The notes below the pieces were generated by a model, which did no database searches, was not told where the DNA came from, and worked only from the letters and a program-made list of their open reading frames with translations. This document shows positions 1,662 to 7,992 of a stretch of 14,897 nt of DNA, piece by piece. The stretch is from Dethiosulfovibrio sp. (GTDB lineage: Bacteria > Synergistota > Synergistia > Synergistales > Dethiosulfovibrionaceae), in the NCBI GenBank assembly GCA_028709985.1, contig JAQUTB010000009.1, positions 1 through 14,897 on the forward strand. The letters run 5' to 3'. Position 1 is the stretch's first letter. Every line of letters begins with the position of its first letter. The translations under genes and the position numbers were made by a program.

Positions 1662-1689
1662 CCAACACCCCTCCTGAGTTTTTATATAG

Positions 1690-1937
1690 GGCATCTCTAA
1701 AAAACTCACACTTGAGTGCCTCGGAGAGACCGCTCCGCCTGCGCCCTGTTTCGCCCAAACGTATTTTCGACCTGCCTGTTCCGTACGAACCGCCTCGGAG
1801 GGCACGTCCTGTGCCCCCTCGGCTTGGGGCGACGTCCTGTCGCCCCATTCATACTACACGACGGCATGTCGAAAATACGGGCTCAAATGGGCTTCGTCGG
1901 AGCGATCTCTCCGAGGATCAGCGTTTTTAGAGATCCC
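1690..1937 (+). repeat. 248-bp palindromic structured element, copy 1
   Basis: Non-coding element bounded by an imperfect inverted repeat: ATCTCTAAAAA (1693-1703) pairs with TTTTTAGAGAT (1924-1934), and GG/CC follows after one mismatched position. Inside is an 18-bp helix (1720-1737 with 1898-1915, one C-A mismatch) and then a 17-bp helix (1760-1776 with 1863-1879, one C-T mismatch). Three small hairpins sit at the tip: GTTC/GAAC (1778-1790), GGGCAC/GTGCCC (1800-1816) and GGGGCGAC/GTCGCCCC (1826-1846). The last two share the loop GTCCT. In this copy the end pairing extends outward as TATAGGG/CCCTATA. A second copy in the same orientation lies at 7676-7923. Candidate explanations are a MITE-like non-autonomous mobile element or a structured RNA. 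It separates lysR from the putative operator at 1990-2004. Confidence 0.88.
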
Positions 1938-1949
1938 CTATAGGCCTTT

Positions 1950-1977
1950 TTGATAATACTATACCACCTTATATTCA
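1950..1977 (+). promoter_or_regulatory. candidate promoter for the M20/PLP operon
   Basis: TTGATA (1950-1955) and TATTCA (1972-1977) are separated by 16 bases in an AT-rich stretch upstream of the gene at 2074. Both are imperfect matches to the sigma-70 hexamers. On the other strand the same stretch contains TATAGT (1958-1963), which could be a -10 box for lysR and would place the dyad at 1990-2004 about 45 bases upstream of a lysR transcript. Only weak support from sequence. Confidence 0.3.
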
Positions 1978-1989
1978 CTATGTTGATCT

Positions 1990-2004
1990 ATAGGCTTAGC
2001 CTAT
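1990..2004. promoter_or_regulatory. putative LysR-type operator
   Basis: Perfect 15-base dyad, ATAGGCT-T-AGCCTAT, in the lysR/M20 divergent intergenic region. It contains the T-N11-A arrangement (T1991 to A2003) typical of LysR-family boxes. It is flanked by TGTTGATC at 1981-1988 and again at 2025-2032, with ATCAAC at 2012-2017, which may be extra half-sites. Binding by the neighbouring LysR protein is inferred from position and form. Confidence 0.5.
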
Positions 2005-2073
2005 GAAACCTATCAACTTTATCCTGTTGATCATAATTATTCTCGGTGTATGCTCTATGTGGAGGTGGAGCTC

Positions 2074-3288
2074 ATGGAGGCTTCGAGAAGGGATGAATTG
2101 ATTCAGCTCTGCCAGGAGCTTATCAGGCATCCCAGCCCGTCGGGGGAAGAGGGCGATATCGCTCGTTTTGTGCGCTCCGTGATGATATCACTGGGCTACG
2201 AGGACGTATACGTCGATGGTTACGGCAGCGTTGTAGGGACGATCGACCTCGGGGGGTCCGGCCCAACCCTTCTCATGGAGGCCCAGATGGACCACGCCGA
2301 GGTCGGAGACGTCGGGGAGTGGCATAACTACCCTTTCGGAGGGCGTCTGGACAGAGGAAGGATCTACGGAAGGGGAGCCACGGACCAGAAAGGGATACTT
2401 GCCGCTATGGTCATGGCGCTTGCTTGGTTCAAGCAGGACAGGTCCGATGGGCTTCATGGAAGGGCCGTCATGGCCGCCATGGTCCACCAGGAGACCTTCG
2501 AGAGGGCTGCTTCCAAGCTGGTTGCGGACAACATAAGGCCCGACGGGGTTATCTCCGGAGAGCCCTCGGAGCTCACGATAGAGAGGGGCCAGAGAGGGCG
2601 GGCGTCCATAGTCTTGGAGACGTTAGGGCGTATGGAACACAGCTCCATGGGTGACAGGAGCTCCGCGGAGGTGTTGGTGCGTCTTATCTCCGAGATAAAA
2701 GACAAGTTCAAACCCAAGGAGGATCCTTTTTTCGGGAAGGGAGCCTTAACCCTCACAGGCCTTCACTCCTATCCCCTGGACGCTAGGACCACTCTGCCGG
2801 TTCGATGTAGGGCCACCTTCGACAGGCGAATCCTTCCCGGCGAGAGCAGGGATGGGGTTTTGGACGAGATAAGGTCCATATTGGGGGGCATTCAGAGCTC
2901 GTTTCCAGGCTTGGAGTTCAGCCTCGCTATAGACAGGGGAGACGGACATTGCTACACCGGAGCCATGATAGGTTCGGAGGGATTTGCCCCTGCCTGGCAG
3001 ATCGATCGGGATCATCCTTTTATAAGGACCGTCATGGATGGGATAAGCGACTCTGGTCTAAAGCCGGTGCTTTCCGAGAGATCGGGATTTGGCACAAACG
3101 GATGTATCTACGGCGGGGAGATGGAGGTTCCAACCGTTGTTTTTGGACCCTCCAGGAGGGAGCTAGCCCACGTCGTTGACGAGTATATAGATGTAGACCA
3201 GCTGGTAATGGGATGTGAATGTTATAATTTTATAGCAAAAAAAATATTAACACGAAGGGAGAGTGTCCGTGATGGGGAAGGCGATTGA
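2074..3288 (+). CDS. M20-family hydrolase paralogue (YgeY-like) with altered active-site residues
   Basis: 404-residue cytoplasmic protein clearly related to the YgeY/ArgE/DapE/CPG2 metallohydrolases and to the second M20 gene at 10984. Shared landmarks are GRGATDQKG (99-107, bridging Asp104), ISGEPSE (Glu163), the dimerisation-domain EHSS (His189) and the final ligand His366 in AHVVDE. Two positions differ from the family. The HxD motif reads QMD, so the usual zinc-ligand His is Gln71; and the catalytic Glu-Glu pair reads Gln139-Glu140, so the usual general-base Glu is Gln. The intact paralogue has HID and EE at these places. The protein may therefore have changed chemistry or only bind ligand. 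Start 2074 is supported by GGAGG eight bases upstream; the in-frame ATG at 2050 has no ribosome-binding site. It overlaps the next gene by 17 bases. Confidence 0.85.
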   Translation: MEASRRDELIQLCQELIRHPSPSGEEGDIARFVRSVMISLGYEDVYVDGYGSVVGTIDLGGSGPTLLMEAQMDHAEVGDVGEWHNYPFGGRLDRGRIYGRGATDQKGILAAMVMALAWFKQDRSDGLHGRAVMAAMVHQETFERAASKLVADNIRPDGVISGEPSELTIERGQRGRASIVLETLGRMEHSSMGDRSSAEVLVRLISEIKDKFKPKEDPFFGKGALTLTGLHSYPLDARTTLPVRCRATFDRRILPGESRDGVLDEIRSILGGIQSSFPGLEFSLAIDRGDGHCYTGAMIGSEGFAPAWQIDRDHPFIRTVMDGISDSGLKPVLSERSGFGTNGCIYGGEMEVPTVVFGPSRRELAHVVDEYIDVDQLVMGCECYNFIAKKILTRRESVRDGEGD

Positions 3289-4516
3289 ACTTAAATGTTC
3301 CCTGTGCGGAAGGAGCTACAGTCCTGACTCGAACGTGATGACATGCCAGGACTGCGGTATAGACGGGACGATGCACGTCCTCTACGACTACGACGAGGTG
3401 AGAAAAAGCCTGTCCATGGAGGGATTGGCTGCGGATCCTGAGAGATCTCTATGGAGATACCTGCCGCTCCTTCCTGTCTCCGATATGACCTACGTGCCGG
3501 AGCTTCAGGTGGGGTGGACTCCCCTATACGATAGCCAGGTGTTGGCTAGCCGCTATGGTGTTGGTCGGGTGATGATAAAAGACGACGGTAGAAACCCCAC
3601 CGCCTCCTATAAGGACAGGGCCAGCGCGGTGGCGGTGGCCATGGCTAAAGAGCTAGGCCGGGATGTTGTGGCCTGCGCCTCCACCGGGAACGCCGCCAGC
3701 TCCTTAGCGGGATTTGCCGCCGTCGGTGGTTTGAGGAGCGTCATATTTGTGCCAGAATCGGCCCCTGAGGCCAAGGTGACCCAGCTTCTCGTCTACGGGG
3801 CCCAGGTGTATCTGGTGAAGGGGGACTACGAGCAGACGGTAAACCTAGCCATAGAGGCCATAGATGCCAACGGATGGTACAACCGTAACTGCGCCATAAA
3901 CCCCTATCTGGTGGAGGGCAAGAAGACCTGCGCAATCGAGATAGCGGAACAGCTTGGCTGGCAGGTTCCGGACAGGATAATCACGTCGGTGGGAGATGGC
4001 TGTATCATCAGCAGCCTCTACAAAGGGTTCTGGGATCTCCTCCAAATCGGCCTTATCGACCACATGCCAAAAATCACCGGAGTTCAGGCGGAGGGAGCCT
4101 GTCCGATCCACCGGGCGATAGAGTCCGGGGCCGACAGGGTAACCTTCCAGCCAGCGGAAACGGTAGCGGACAGCATCTCCGTTGGAGCTCCCAGAAACTG
4201 GGTCAAGGCCTTGAACGCCGTCAGATCCAGTGAGGGCACTACCGTGACCGTATCGGACAAAGAGATACTGGAGGCCATGACCGAACTTGCCAGGGCCACA
4301 GGGGTCTTCGGTGAGCCAGCTGGAGTTACTGCCTTCGCCGGCTTCAAGAGAATGGCCCAGGACGGGCTTTTGGGATCCTGCGAGACCGTTGCCATAGTGG
4401 TGACGGGAAACGGCCTTAAGGATATAGTCAGCGCCAAAAAATCGGTGGGAGTTCCGACCGTGGTGGAGCCGAGCATGGAATCGTTCAGCGCCGCTATGGC
4501 TTTAAAAAATATTTAA
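3272..4516 (+). CDS. Threonine-synthase-like PLP enzyme (lyase/thiolase type)
   Basis: 414-residue fold-type-II PLP enzyme resembling threonine synthase. It begins with a small zinc-ribbon-like element (Cys9, Cys12, Cys25, Cys28), as in archaeal-type threonine synthases. The Schiff-base lysine is Lys114 in NPTASYKDRAS, STGNAAS (138-144) supplies the cofactor-contacting Asn140, and SVGDGCIISS (239-248) fits the phosphate-binding loop. Threonine synthase makes threonine from O-phosphohomoserine, but no homoserine-pathway gene is present. The neighbours are catabolic hydrolases, so a degradative lyase or thiolase role is at least as likely. The ATG at 3272 follows AGGGAG by ten bases; GTG codons at 3263 and 3269 are in frame and possible. 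The start lies inside the end of the M20 gene, indicating translational coupling. Confidence 0.78.
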   Translation: MGKAIELKCSLCGRSYSPDSNVMTCQDCGIDGTMHVLYDYDEVRKSLSMEGLAADPERSLWRYLPLLPVSDMTYVPELQVGWTPLYDSQVLASRYGVGRVMIKDDGRNPTASYKDRASAVAVAMAKELGRDVVACASTGNAASSLAGFAAVGGLRSVIFVPESAPEAKVTQLLVYGAQVYLVKGDYEQTVNLAIEAIDANGWYNRNCAINPYLVEGKKTCAIEIAEQLGWQVPDRIITSVGDGCIISSLYKGFWDLLQIGLIDHMPKITGVQAEGACPIHRAIESGADRVTFQPAETVADSISVGAPRNWVKALNAVRSSEGTTVTVSDKEILEAMTELARATGVFGEPAGVTAFAGFKRMAQDGLLGSCETVAIVVTGNGLKDIVSAKKSVGVPTVVEPSMESFSAAMALKNI

Positions 4517-4533
4517 AGGGAGTGTTTTTGAAT

Positions 4534-6012
4534 ATGGCATACAATTTGATCGATCTGACGGTTCATCAGGACAAGCTTAAAAACGCGATTGACAGGGCCA
4601 GGGAAAAAGGCATAGTCATCCCCACCTTCGCCCAGATGAAGGACCCCTCTAAAATCCCTGCGGAAATTCAGGAGAAGCTCAAATCCGTCGGCCTCTGGGA
4701 CATCGACCCTCTGAACCTGTTCAGGATCACATGGAAGAACGAGCCGGTCAAGGAGGGCGGGCTTTACAGCGGAGTCAACTACATAGAGATTCCCCAGTCC
4801 ATCTCCGGTGTGAAGGCCCGCATACTTGCGCTGGTGGGAAAGTGGTTTCCCACCGGAGCTCACAAGGTAGGAGCCACCTTCGGCTGCCTTGCCCCAAGGC
4901 TCGTGACGGGACAGTTCGACCCCATAAACCAGAAGGCAGTATGGCCCTCGACGGGCAACTACTGTAGAGGAGGGGCCTACAACGCCCAGCTTCTGGGATG
5001 CGAGTCCATCGCCATCCTCCCCGAGGGCATGAGCAAAGAGAGGTTCGAGTGGCTCAAGAAGGTGGCAGGGGAGGTCATAGCCACCCCTGGATCGGAGAGC
5101 AACGTAAAGGAGATCTTCGATAAGACCTGGGAGCTCAGGAACACCAGGGACAACGTGGTTATATTCAACCAGTTCGAGGAGATGGGCAACTATCTGTGGC
5201 ACTACCAGATAACCGGTGACGCCATAGAGGAGATGCTCAAGGAATCTATGAAGGAGGGCGACCGTTACTTCGGCTGTGCCTTCACCACCGGATCGGCTGG
5301 GACCATCGGTTGCGGCGACTACCTCAAGAAGATATACCCCTCCAGCGTAATAGCCGCCTCCGAGGCTCTTCAGTGCCCGACCCTGCTGTGGAACGGATGG
5401 GGAGCTCACAGGATAGAGGGCATCGGCGACAAGCACGTGCCCTGGGTTCACAACGTCAGGAACACCGACATGATAATAGACGTGGACGACAACGACTCCA
5501 TGGCCTGGATCAGGCTATTCAACGAGCCGGCAGGCAAGGAATACCTCAAGAAGCAGGGTGTTTCCGAGGATCTGGTGGAGCAGCTTGATCTGGTCGGTAT
5601 ATCCGGCGCGGCCAACATAATCTCCTGCATAAAGATGGCCAAATACTACGAGCTAACCGAGAAGGACGTACTGGTCACAGTGCTCACCGACTCCATGGAG
5701 CTTTACAACTCCCGTTTAACCGAGATGGAGGAGGAGTTCGGACCATACAGGGAGATGGACGCAGCTATCGACTACCATCAGCACGCCATGGGGCTCTCTG
5801 TGGACTACATGCAGGAGCTTTCCTACAGGGACAGAAAGAGGGTTCACGACCTTAAGTACTACACCTGGATAGAGCAGCAGGGCAAGACCATGGAGGAGCT
5901 GGACGCCCAGTGGTACGACGCCGACAGCTATTGGGGCGAGATAAGGGATATGGCGGACAAAATAGACGAAAAGATAGAGGAGTTCAACGATAAGGTTGGC
6001 CTCGTAAAATAG
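4534..6012 (+). CDS. TrpB-like fold-type-II PLP enzyme of unknown reaction
   Basis: 492-residue PLP enzyme of the tryptophan-synthase-beta/cysteine-synthase superfamily. The cofactor lysine is Lys111 in FPTGAHKVGATFG, where TGAHK is the TrpB-type motif. STGNYCRGG (139-147) is the Asn loop, and TTGSAGTIGCGDYLK (251-265) is the likely phosphate-binding loop. It is longer than TrpB (about 400 residues): it has an extra N-terminal 70 residues and a charged, aromatic C-terminal tail of about 100 residues rich in Tyr, Trp, Glu and Asp. No TrpA gene or other tryptophan gene is nearby, so a tryptophan role is unlikely. It may be the kind of protein annotated as a PLP-dependent beta subunit beside YgeY/YgeW genes. 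The gene starts 17 bases after the previous stop, with AAAGGGAG upstream; GTG 4522 and TTG 4528 are alternative in-frame starts. Confidence 0.8.
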   Translation: MAYNLIDLTVHQDKLKNAIDRAREKGIVIPTFAQMKDPSKIPAEIQEKLKSVGLWDIDPLNLFRITWKNEPVKEGGLYSGVNYIEIPQSISGVKARILALVGKWFPTGAHKVGATFGCLAPRLVTGQFDPINQKAVWPSTGNYCRGGAYNAQLLGCESIAILPEGMSKERFEWLKKVAGEVIATPGSESNVKEIFDKTWELRNTRDNVVIFNQFEEMGNYLWHYQITGDAIEEMLKESMKEGDRYFGCAFTTGSAGTIGCGDYLKKIYPSSVIAASEALQCPTLLWNGWGAHRIEGIGDKHVPWVHNVRNTDMIIDVDDNDSMAWIRLFNEPAGKEYLKKQGVSEDLVEQLDLVGISGAANIISCIKMAKYYELTEKDVLVTVLTDSMELYNSRLTEMEEEFGPYREMDAAIDYHQHAMGLSVDYMQELSYRDRKRVHDLKYYTWIEQQGKTMEELDAQWYDADSYWGEIRDMADKIDEKIEEFNDKVGLVK

Positions 6013-6031
6013 ATCAGTAAAGATCAATCGT

Positions 6032-6065
6032 TATGCCCCCTTTTGAAATCCTGAAAGGGGGCGTA
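6032..6065. other. GC-rich hairpin between the TrpB-like gene and the deacylase
   Basis: GCCCCCTTT (6035-6043) pairs perfectly with AAAGGGGGC (6054-6062) around a ten-base loop, and two or three further pairs extend it outward. No run of T follows on either strand, so it is not a convincing intrinsic terminator. It may act as a stabilising or processing hairpin, or a partial terminator that lowers downstream expression. Confidence 0.5.
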
Positions 6066-6091
6066 TATAGATAAAATTTAAGAGGGTATTT

Positions 6092-7669
6092 GTGTTGTTT
6101 GACGTTTTATTTAACGATGCTTTGATTGTGAACGGCGTTGGTTCAGACACGTTCCGTGCCGACGTCGCGGTTCTGGGTGGTGAGATAGCGGCAATAGGCC
6201 ACGATCTTGGCTTCGCCAGGGAGATCGTCGACCTACGTGGTCTGTATCTGGCTCCTGGATTTGTAGACATCCACGGACACTCGGAGCTCCGGGCTATGGT
6301 TGATCCTGGGCTCTACCCTAAGCTCCTTCAGGGTTACACCACTGAGCTGGGAGGCAACTGCGGTGTAGGGTTGGCCCCAGTTCGCCCCGAAGGCAGGGCC
6401 GATCTGGCTAAAGAGGTCTCTGGGATACTGGGCCTTGGGCCTTCCGACTGGCCCTGGAGCTCTTTCCCAGAGCTGTTGGACCATCTGGGATCGATGGACT
6501 TCGGCCTTGACCTGGGACTTTTAGTCCCACACGGTCCCCTCAGGCGCTTCGTCATGGGAGGTAGGTCCTGCCAGTCCGCCACGGCGGAGGACCTTCGCCA
6601 GATGGGGCTACTGCTCGATCAGGCCATGGATGCCGGGGCCTTTGGCCTCTCCACAGGGCTTTTTTACGACCCCTGCTGCTACTGTGACGGCAGAGAGCTC
6701 GAGGCCCTTTTCTCCGTGGTGGCGGCCCGAGGAGGGCTGGTCTCGGTCCACCAGCGCAGCGAGGGCGACGGCATTCTCGACTCCCTCGAGGAGATCCTGT
6801 CTCCCGCCGAGAGGACCGGAGCCAGGCTACAGATATCCCACCTCAAGATAGGTGGCAGACGAAACGCCCACAAGTTGGAGGCGGTATTGAACAGAATAGG
6901 AGCGGCGGTCGACTCAGGTGTGGACGTCGCCTTCGACCAATATCCCTACTCAGCTGGCTCCACGTCGCTGTACAGCCTGTTGCCCCCTAGATGGATGGGG
7001 CTTGACTTTAGTCTGCTAAGGCGGTCTCTCTGTGATAAAGTAGATAGATCCATCATAAGGGAGGAGATGGAGAACCCGGATGGCTGGGACGGGGTACACT
7101 CTCTGGTCGGTTGGGGCGGAATATACCTGACCTCCGCTCAGAGGGAGGAGCATCAGCCATACCTGGGTAAAAGCCTGGAGGAGATAGGCGGCATGAGAGA
7201 GGAGGATCCTTTCGATTCGTTCTTTTATCTCCTGTCGGAGGAGGGGAAGGCGTTGACCATGATTGACTTTATCACCTCCGACGAAATGGTGGACAGGATC
7301 ATGGCTCACCCGCTCCAGATGTTCGGGACCGACGGCCTTTACTCTCCCTGCCCTCATCCCAGGACCTTCGGCTGTTCCTACAGGGTCCTTGGGGATTACG
7401 TGAGAGGCGGAAAGCTCTCCCTGTCGGAGGCGGTGAACAAACTATCCTCGAGGCCAGCGGCCAGAATGGGCCTTACCGACAGAGGAACCATTCAGGTCGG
7501 TAAAAAGGCGGACCTGGTGGCTCTGGACGTGGATGCCATGGCTAATCTGGCGGACTACGGCCATCCCGACAGGATCGGGGAGGGCATACCTTTAGTCTGG
7601 GTAGGTGGAAAGCTGTCGGTCAGGGACAAGACGGTCGTAGGGTTGGGAGGGCGGTTGCTAAGGAGGTGA
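6092..7669 (+). CDS. N-acyl-D-amino-acid deacylase (D-aminoacylase family amidohydrolase)
   Basis: 525-residue zinc amidohydrolase that would remove the N-acyl group from an N-acyl-D-amino acid or related compound in the cytoplasm. The metal and catalytic residues known from D-aminoacylase are in place: HGH (His61, His63), GGNCG (Cys90), SVHQRSEG (His220), ISHLK (His250) and GTDG (Asp414). The N-terminal beta-sandwich strand (FDVLFNDALIVNG) and the C-terminal GTIQVGKKADLVALD segment are typical of the amidohydrolase fold. The start is GTG at 6092 with AGAGGG five bases upstream; TTG 6095 is also possible. It lies 79 bases after the TrpB-like gene across a hairpin. Palindromic element copy 2 begins seven bases after its stop. 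Substrate specificity, including D- versus L-configuration, cannot be decided here. Confidence 0.88.
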   Translation: MLFDVLFNDALIVNGVGSDTFRADVAVLGGEIAAIGHDLGFAREIVDLRGLYLAPGFVDIHGHSELRAMVDPGLYPKLLQGYTTELGGNCGVGLAPVRPEGRADLAKEVSGILGLGPSDWPWSSFPELLDHLGSMDFGLDLGLLVPHGPLRRFVMGGRSCQSATAEDLRQMGLLLDQAMDAGAFGLSTGLFYDPCCYCDGRELEALFSVVAARGGLVSVHQRSEGDGILDSLEEILSPAERTGARLQISHLKIGGRRNAHKLEAVLNRIGAAVDSGVDVAFDQYPYSAGSTSLYSLLPPRWMGLDFSLLRRSLCDKVDRSIIREEMENPDGWDGVHSLVGWGGIYLTSAQREEHQPYLGKSLEEIGGMREEDPFDSFFYLLSEEGKALTMIDFITSDEMVDRIMAHPLQMFGTDGLYSPCPHPRTFGCSYRVLGDYVRGGKLSLSEAVNKLSSRPAARMGLTDRGTIQVGKKADLVALDVDAMANLADYGHPDRIGEGIPLVWVGGKLSVRDKTVVGLGGRLLRR

Positions 7670-7675
7670 TATTTT

Positions 7676-7923
7676 GGAATCTCTAAAAACACATTCCTCG
7701 GAGAGACCGTTCCGCCTGCGCCCTTGTCTCGCCCGGGCGTATACTCGACCTGCCTGTTCCGTACGAACCGCCTCGGAGGGCACGTCCTGTGCCCCCTCGG
7801 CTTGGGGCGACGTCCTGTCGCCCCATTCGTACTACACAACGGCAGGTCGAGTATACGGGCTCGAAGGGGCTTCGTCGGAACGGTCTCTCCGAGGAGACTG
7901 GAGCGTGCTTTTTTAGAGATGCC
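7676..7923 (+). repeat. 248-bp palindromic structured element, copy 2
   Basis: Second copy of the element at 1690-1937, same orientation and length. Ends are GG-A-ATCTCTAAAAA (7676-7689) and TTTTTAGAGAT-G-CC (7910-7923). The 18-bp helix (7697 onward with its partner ending at 7893) and the 17-bp CGTATACTCGACCTGCC helix are both perfect here. Against copy 1, paired positions have changed together: CGCTCCG/CGGAGCG became CGTTCCG/CGGAACG, and TATTTTC/GAAAATA became TATACTC/GAGTATA. The tip hairpins with GTCCT loops are identical. The element fills most of the gap between the deacylase and dctP. Open frames cross it but have no ribosome-binding site or recognisable product. Confidence 0.88.
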
Positions 7924-7992
7924 TATTGTTTTTCCCTGTGGTTCTCCAGAGTACAGTCAGAGAAATTCACCTATAAAAGGAGGAATATGAGA

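What the first reader, a model, noticed from the sequence alone, without database searches (positions are those of the whole stretch)
1690..7923. Two 248-bp multi-branched palindromic elements with compensatory base changes
Copies at 1690-1937 and 7676-7923 share length, orientation and an elaborate layout: end inverted repeat, 18-bp helix, 17-bp helix and three tip hairpins. Where they differ inside the helices, both strands change together (C-G to T-A in the first helix; T-A to A-T and T-A to C-G in the second). Three compensated pairs in two copies point to selection on the folded form, as RNA or as cruciform/single-stranded DNA, or to a process that copies one arm onto the other. I do not recognise the family.
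Basis: seen in the sequence. Interest (0 to 1): 0.78.

Follow-up and report, generated by a model that had tools for sequence, protein, structure and literature searches.

The report
Mobile DNA repeats carrying regulatory-RNA hairpins
The two look-alike folded elements are copies of a small jumping DNA repeat whose cargo resembles an RNA thought to soak up a global bacterial regulator protein, so a selfish element may be spreading a regulatory sponge through these genomes.

Summary
Copies at 1689-1938 and 7675-7924 (250 bp) share the layout and the three compensated pairs described. They belong to a dispersed family: about 40 places in this incomplete genome, matches in all 7 genus genomes searched. 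It is an IS5-type MITE: ends GGGNANCTCTAAAAA, a 4-bp target duplication (44 of 89 perfect, 5.9 expected), an empty site in five relatives, and a 1.3-kb IS5-family insertion sequence with closely matching ends and a 4-bp duplication. The cargo, on the minus strand, passes Rfam's threshold for TwoAYGGAY RNA (57.2 and 56.3 bits, cut-off 43) and is found at E about 2e-10 by a model built only from Clostridia. Both loops read CAGGACG, the CsrB-type CsrA site (recalled); a CsrA role for TwoAYGGAY was proposed in 2014. The cargo core changes less than the ends, and its mismatches favour G-U over A-C (66 to 37 events) while the ends show no bias (30 to 31). TwoAYGGAY is multi-copy elsewhere too. Transcription and CsrA binding were not testable. 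In Clostridia the outer arms show no strand bias, so a DNA-level process is not excluded.

The parts
1685..1688 (.). left target-site duplication of copy 1 (TATA)
   Evidence: sequence; 4-bp duplications in 44 of 89 copies
1689..1938 (-). copy 1: 250-bp IS5-type MITE; RNA cargo reads on the minus strand
   Evidence: no element in the orthologous region of G001-G005
1689..1703 (.). terminal inverted repeat, copy 1, left (GGGCATCTCTAAAAA)
1924..1938 (.). terminal inverted repeat, copy 1, right
1939..1942 (.). right target-site duplication of copy 1 (TATA)
1719..1737 (-). helix P1, one arm (partner 1898-1916)
   Evidence: covariation over 89 copies
1898..1916 (-). helix P1, other arm
1760..1776 (-). 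helix P2, one arm (partner 1863-1879)
   Evidence: covariation over 89 copies
1863..1879 (-). helix P2, other arm
1779..1857 (-). TwoAYGGAY-like core of copy 1
   Evidence: RF01731 57.2 bits over 1746-1899; Clostridia-only model R2, 36.4 bits, E 2e-10
1826..1846 (-). hairpin A, copy 1; minus-strand loop AGGAC at 1834-1838
1792..1823 (-). hairpin B with a GA/GA internal loop, copy 1; loop AGGAC at 1806-1810
7675..7924 (-). copy 2: 250-bp MITE; flanks ATTT / ATTG (3 of 4 of a duplication)
   Evidence: same site occupied in G003, inverted and partly deleted copy at the same site in G004
7757..7835 (-). TwoAYGGAY-like core of copy 2
   Evidence: RF01731 56.3 bits over 7737-7857; model R2 35.9 bits
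7804..7824 (-). hairpin A, copy 2; loop at 7812-7816
7770..7801 (-). hairpin B, copy 2; loop at 7784-7788

Best explanation
Each element is a non-autonomous IS5-type MITE. Its terminal repeats (15-20 bp) are moved in trans by an IS5-family transposase, with a 4-bp duplication of a C|TWWA|G target (repeats, duplication, partner and empty site: shown; the transposase acting on the MITE: inferred). Its cargo is a variant TwoAYGGAY RNA. When the minus strand is transcribed, probably by read-through from flanking genes (inferred, no transcript data), it folds into a long rod ending in a junction that presents two hairpins with CAGGACG loops 28 nt apart. That is the kind of paired site a CsrA dimer clamps (recalled; proposed for TwoAYGGAY in print). 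Tens of copies would together act as a dispersed CsrA decoy, and a copy that lands in a leader would put its gene under CsrA (inferred).
For: Mobility: 4-bp duplication 44 of 89 against 5.9 by permutation, maximum 13 in 1000; copy 1 absent from the orthologous intergenic region in 5 of 5 relatives looked at, G001-G005 (G006 not looked at); IS with matching ends (0 mismatches to the end pattern at one end, 2-3 at the other), 9 copies with both ends, 8 of 9 with a perfect 4-bp duplication, transposase NF033581 at 281 bits against a cut-off of 140. RNA cargo: RF01731 above cut-off in both window copies, 0 of 14 control genomes; Clostridia-only model finds both copies at E 2e-10 and 3e-10 and 10 of 10 further loci of G001-G005, with no hit in the 4 transposase and CsrA loci given to it. 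Constraint: 1.40 changes per site in the core, 8.09 in the terminal repeats, p 1e-8. Strand: G-U 66 to A-C 37 events, p 0.0055; terminal repeats 30 to 31. CsrA: present in 7 of 7 genus genomes and over the cut-off in all 8 RF01731-positive genomes of 61 (Fisher p 0.016, not corrected for kinship), and in 16 of 18 genomes fetched by the TwoAYGGAY pattern.
Against: No expression data; no convincing own promoter or terminator: the promoter scan is 7 against 3.3 (sd 2.0) in shuffles, the terminator scan 8 against 5.2 (sd 2.3), and the one terminator-like site inside a copy is on the plus strand (7887-7903). The loops are A-GGAC, one base short of AYGGAY. The plus strand also folds far below shuffles. 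The inner-versus-terminal difference in G-U/A-C is only p 0.07; P1, P2 and the two hairpins taken alone are not significant, only the junction helix is (p 0.027), and on internal branches alone it is 15 to 6, p 0.08. The RNA strand is more often antisense than sense between tandem genes (12 to 3, p 0.035; 84 of 89 copies looked at, 15 informative). G006 has CsrA and the MITE, but none of its copies tested is hit by RF01731 or R2 and several loops are flipped or lost. Core conservation is inflated to an unknown degree by having searched with a whole copy. 2 of 18 pattern genomes lack a CsrA hit.
Confidence: 0.6

Rival explanations
1. The same IS5-type MITE, but the interior is only a DNA palindrome inherited from a TwoAYGGAY-bearing ancestor. 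Pairing is kept by arm-to-arm copying (template switching or gene conversion), and no RNA function remains.
For: External (Clostridia) arms are paired with no strand bias, G-U 109 and A-C 120 in 60 copies (p 0.51); hairpin A of 29 external rows has 0 G-U in 232 cells; hairpin flips in G006 and an inverted copy in G004 show that DNA-level rearrangement of the palindrome happens; internal deletions in 10 of the 11 G004 units fetched, most of which were chosen as short.
Against: Inside the copies of this genus G-U outnumber A-C 66 to 37 while the terminal repeats are even; G-U to Watson-Crick completions 29 against 3 from A-C, terminal repeats 12 against 4; hairpin B of external rows has 10 G-U and 0 A-C cells; the core, loops included, changes less than the paired arms P1 and P2 (p 0.005).
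Confidence: 0.28
2. A cis-acting leader element (Rfam's type for RF01731 is Cis-reg) that controls the next gene, here the LysR-type gene downstream of copy 1.
For: Copy 1 lies in the lysR direction, about 27 bp upstream of its likely start (by eye), with a promoter-like site (1986-1958, minus) on the other side.
Against: Insertion absent from five relatives; copy 2 is antisense to its operon; informative tandem contexts 3 sense, 12 antisense; promoter scan little above shuffles (7 against 3.3, sd 2.0). Whether gene neighbours are conserved over all copies was not tested.
Confidence: 0.07
3. The interior hairpins are a transposition signal, as in REP or Y1-transposase elements.
For: Hairpins at the ends are the substrate of Y1 enzymes (recalled).
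Against: Ends, duplication and partner are of the DDE IS5 type; the two partner IS loci tested have the ends but were not hit by the RNA model (L221, L218).
Confidence: 0.05

Closest known systems
TwoAYGGAY RNA (Rfam RF01731; Weinberg 2010, PMC2864571, passage seen)
   Same: Two adjacent hairpins, AAUG N6 [loop] N6 CAAG spacing, CGGUU after the second hairpin, a GA/GA internal loop, minus-strand score over the gathering threshold
   Different: Loops A-GGAC not AYGGAY; outer helices differ; carried between IS5-type terminal repeats. The 2010 table lists human gut, gamma-Proteobacteria and Clostridiales
CsrA-sequestering sRNAs (CsrB, RsmY, RsmZ)
   Same: CAGGACG-type sites in hairpin loops, in a pair, in genomes with CsrA
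   Different: Two sites rather than many (recalled for CsrB); tens of mobile copies; no own promoter seen; binding untested
IS5-family MITEs
   Same: Terminal repeats, 4-bp duplication, autonomous partner, empty site, deletion derivatives
   Different: Interior is more conserved than the ends and matches a structured RNA family
Structured bacterial MITEs (Correia/NEMIS, ERIC; recalled)
   Same: Short mobile palindromes that fold when transcribed
   Different: No GGA-loop CsrA sites known to me; other ends (recalled, not compared here)

Membership tests
IS5-type MITE | short terminal inverted repeats at both ends | tested here: met
   89 of 109 copies have both ends within 3 mismatches; 122 end matches in G004 against 7 for the reversed pattern, up to 1 mismatch
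IS5-type MITE | target-site duplication of fixed length | tested here: met
   4 bp, 44 of 89 perfect, permutation mean 5.9
IS5-type MITE | autonomous partner with matching ends | tested here: met
   1.3-kb IS in G001 (8 copies with both ends) and G003 (1); NF033581, PF01609; none found in the window's own genome (0 PF01609 matches)
IS5-type MITE | empty site | tested here: met
   copy 1 absent in 5 of 5 orthologous regions looked at
IS5-type MITE | mobilised in trans by that transposase | not testable with these tools
   needs a transposition assay
TwoAYGGAY (RF01731) | score over Rfam gathering threshold | tested here: met
   57.2 and 56.3 bits, cut-off 43
TwoAYGGAY (RF01731) | found by a model built without this genus | tested here: met
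   E 2e-10 and 3e-10 with 25 rows titled Lachnospiraceae, Roseburia or Eubacterium
TwoAYGGAY (RF01731) | both loops literally AYGGAY | tested here: not met
   both loops are A-GGAC, one base shorter; hence filed as a variant, not as a typical member
TwoAYGGAY (RF01731) | tandem G.A in a stem (named in PMC4333381) | tested here: met
   GCCGAGG / CCGAGGC of hairpin B: a GA/GA two-by-two internal loop in the sequence and in the predicted fold
CsrA-sequestering sRNA | GGA in the loops of at least two hairpins | tested here: met
CsrA-sequestering sRNA | CsrA in the same genome | tested here: met
   7 of 7 genus genomes, the window's own among them
CsrA-sequestering sRNA | own promoter and terminator | tested here: inconclusive
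   consensus scans near shuffle level
CsrA-sequestering sRNA | binds and titrates CsrA | not testable with these tools
   needs gel shift or CLIP

The most novel reading that the evidence does not exclude
TwoAYGGAY is not an ordinary single-copy regulator but the cargo of mobile elements in several phyla: selfish DNA that spreads a CsrA decoy. Copy number then sets the dose of free CsrA, and each insertion can put a gene under CsrA, so transposition rewires a global post-transcriptional network. (Mobility is shown here only for this genus; elsewhere only the multi-copy state was seen.)
Probability: 0.3. Interest if true: 0.85.

Novelty: new variant of a known kind. Interest (0 to 1): 0.62.

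Why it matters
It joins two things that I did not find joined in the papers searched here: an orphan RNA family with a suspected CsrA role, and a mobile repeat with an identified candidate transposase. If RNA and CsrA meet in the cell, transposition becomes a way to spread or dose a global regulator's decoy, and the multi-copy state of TwoAYGGAY in Lachnospiraceae and Alteromonadaceae records gets an explanation. The genus offers natural contrasts: RF01731 match counts of 0 to 33 per genome (lower bounds), one csrA match each, occupied and empty sites.

Tried and rejected
Pattern GACAGGACGTC N5 AAGCCGAGG in genome contigs gave 0 hits (near relatives of the window's genome may be left out); the TwoAYGGAY pattern in viral contigs gave 0. 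REP/Y1 idea for G018 (two hits 2 kb apart in opposite orientation): the arms are 156-nt repeats around a gene that by its ORF looks like a PLP-dependent enzyme, no transposase recognised by eye among the listed ORFs, no family search made; dropped. Autonomous partner by perfect end pairs alone failed in the complete lists of G001 and G006 and in the listed part of G004 and G003; the PF01609 search found it. The RNA-versus-DNA test on external arms came out against my reading. Model R1 held 3 rows of this genus, so it was not used for searching; R2 without them was built instead.

Two scripts stopped on my own errors: after its first results, rerun; before any result, rerun.

Rows dropped before counts: 20 of 109 copies lacking one end; 5 of 89 with short flanks; of 31 picked external sequences, L252 and L267 as likely chance pattern hits, leaving 29 in A1, and from A2 also the 4 gammaproteobacterial rows and the 3 rows of this genus; copies with under 120 nt of flank or an arm score under 25 (their number was not printed); the edge pair of P1, the A-G column of P2 and the outer pairs of hairpin B in the G-U/A-C test. 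The 109 copies were made distinct by flank, so an insertion shared by two genomes can count twice (window copy 2 and L163, for example).

Papers: 9 of 10 searches used. Passages seen of PMC2864571, PMC11701678, PMC4333381, PMC11661157, PMC7657543 and PMC4383904; all others only in search listings. In those searches I saw no paper that joins TwoAYGGAY or CsrA sites to MITEs; the library lacks most subscription papers.

The organism of the window was not identified by any search; I take it for a member of Synergistota from recalled gene content only.
Full report
WHAT WAS CLAIMED AND CHECKED. Two elements of 248 bp at 1690-1937 and 7676-7923 with shared layout and three compensated pairs. The sequence and repeat search confirm them. 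The terminal repeats set the ends at 1689-1938 and 7675-7924, 250 bp each, the commonest length in the family (45 of 89). Copy 1 folds far below shuffles on both strands, more stably on the minus strand (-149.3 against -131.6 kcal/mol); copy 2 minus -157.3.

HOW COMMON. The own genome (358 contigs, 66% complete) holds about 40 distinct places (62 matches, the rest being mostly cross-matches of the palindrome; 40 of 66 candidates scored). All 7 genus genomes searched have matches. Copy numbers per genome are lower bounds, because each search scores at most 38-40 candidates. By RF01731 the counts are 23, 9, 4, 33, 32, 7 and 0 for G000-G006.

IT IS MOBILE. From 109 copies distinct by flank (an insertion shared by two genomes can count twice), 89 have both ends within 3 mismatches of GGGNANCTCTAAAAA. 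The 4 bases outside are identical on both sides in 44 of 89 (mean 5.9, maximum 13 in 1000 permutations) and match at 3 or more of 4 in 75 of 89 (mean 27.8); target C|TWWA|G. Lengths of 5 to 7 give nothing. Copy 1 has TATA on both sides; the orthologous lysR-peptidase gap in G004, G003, G005, G001 and G002 has no element (G006 not looked at). Copy 2 is shared with G003; G004 has at the same place an inverted copy lacking one hairpin. Eleven further end-to-end units fetched from G004 carry the ends and, to a varying degree, the interior of the same element; 10 are shortened by internal deletions (48-221 bp from end to end) and one (L317) is near full length.

THE PARTNER. A search with PF01609 over the 7 genus genomes gave 12 matches in 3 genomes, none in the window's own incomplete genome. 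Nine have both ends, one end with 0 and the other with 2-3 mismatches to the end pattern: GGGCATCTCTAAAAACTCCC and TGGGGTTGCTAGAGGTGCCC in G001, variants in G003. They are 1298-1300 bp, with a perfect 4-bp duplication in 8 of 9 (CTTA, TATA, GTAA, ATAT, ATGA, TCTC, GCTT, TAGA; L219 fails). The transposase (348-aa frame) is IS5 family by NF033581 (281 bits, cut-off 140) and has PF01609 and PF05598. So the MITE has a plausible driver inside the genus.

THE CARGO. Both copies score over Rfam's threshold for TwoAYGGAY on the minus strand. In 61 genomes of the order (stricter filters above 40 genomes) 8 have a match at E 0.001 or better, 7 over the cut-off, and 0 of 14 control genomes. To test membership without the window I fetched 77 stretches of genome contigs with a TwoAYGGAY pattern. 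By record title 64 are Lachnospiraceae or Roseburia, 6 Eubacterium, 1 Clostridiales and 6 gammaproteobacterial. Single assemblies hold many: 15 stretches in RUG297, 17 in one Roseburia bin, 3 in Alteromonadaceae BrNp21-10. Twenty-five rows from the Lachnospiraceae, Roseburia and Eubacterium records gave model R2. It finds exactly the two window copies, at E 2e-10 and 3e-10, 10 of 10 tested loci of G001-G005 and 5 of 5 gammaproteobacterial loci, but 0 of 6 G006 loci. Sequence shared beyond what the pattern imposes includes CGGUU after hairpin B. The loops differ: AYGGAY there, A-GGAC here. The 32-row alignment A1 (3 rows of this genus) has strongly covarying stems: 90.6% of 605 cells paired, 61.7% in shuffles, 178 double-changed cells against 54. 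The loops there are fixed by the search pattern and are no evidence. The three rows of this genus are misaligned by one base in hairpin B and lower its figure.

CONSTRAINT AND STRAND. Parsimony changes per site over 89 copies: terminal repeats 8.1, subterminal 10.7, P1 2.7, P2 2.7, core 1.4, loops 1.6 and 1.0. For a MITE the ends should be the conserved part; here the cargo is. The caution is that copies were found with a whole-copy query. Mismatch type separates RNA from DNA pairing, since G-U pairs on one strand are A-C on the other. In the inner helices G-U arose 66 times and A-C 37 (p 0.0055); completions to Watson-Crick 29 and 3; the terminal repeats gave 30 and 31. P1, P2 and the two hairpins alone are not significant, the junction helix is (16 to 5, p 0.027), internal branches alone give 15 to 6 (p 0.08), and inner against terminal is p 0.07. 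External rows: hairpin B 10 G-U, 0 A-C; hairpin A 0 and 1. External outer arms: 109 G-U and 120 A-C in 60 copies, no bias. So the RNA reading is favoured in this genus and not general.

LINK TO CsrA. [quoted passage not shown] Both loops here read CAGGACG, the CsrB repeat type (recalled). CsrA is in 7 of 7 genus genomes and over the cut-off in 0 of 7 sister-genus genomes (one, G011, has a sub-threshold match), which also lack RF01731; 27 other genomes of the 61 have CsrA over the cut-off without RF01731. Of 18 pattern genomes 16 have it; the base rate in Lachnospiraceae was not measured. In the divergent G006 copies (15 rows, 14 distinct), by eye GGA is kept in 10 of 14 hairpin A and 11 of 14 hairpin B loops, with 3 flipped hairpins and one lost; neither RF01731 nor R2 reports the G006 loci tested.

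CONTEXT. Of 84 copies with enough flank, 15 lie between tandem genes by a crude ORF rule: 12 with the RNA antisense, 3 sense (p 0.035). This speaks against a general leader role. Copy 1 lies between a promoter-like site and lysR, copy 2 antisense between a D-aminoacylase-like gene and a TRAP transporter gene (gene names by eye, not searched).

VERDICT. Real and mobile: an IS5-type MITE whose cargo is a variant TwoAYGGAY RNA. RNA function and CsrA titration are the best reading of the anatomy but remain unshown.

Noticed in passing
L230, L235, L239, L242, L245, L246, L270, L273, L274, L278, L281, L288, L291, L294 (Lachnospiraceae RUG297): TwoAYGGAY copies sit between outer arms that pair within a copy (mean local score 25.5 over a 42-nt outer arm, 14 copies) but barely align between copies (mean 7.1, maximum 16 of 182 comparisons). 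Either very fast compensated change, arm copying, or insertion at palindrome tips.
   Followed up: partly
G061, G064, G065, G066, G073 (and G062, which has only this type): Several TwoAYGGAY-bearing Lachnospiraceae or Eubacterium genomes carry a second, divergent CsrA-like frame (about 54-58 bits).
   Followed up: no
L169:1880-2045: In G004 the element orthologous to window copy 2 is inverted in place and has lost one hairpin, with traces of a second end repeat beside it.
   Followed up: partly
L061:3672-3827 and 5655-5810: G018 has 156-nt inverted repeats around one gene that weakly match TwoAYGGAY (43.6 bits; R2 E 1e-4), a different repeat with similar hairpins; G035 has a similar match (40.4 bits).
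   Followed up: partly
L195, L199, L202 (G006): Single hairpins have flipped so that the loop reads as its reverse complement (ATCCT or CTCCT for AGGAT or AGGAG), a DNA-level event.
   Followed up: no
L027 and L029, left ends: A copy lies directly beside another copy's end sequence (CTCTAAA|GGG), as if a MITE had inserted into an end repeat of the same family.
   Followed up: no
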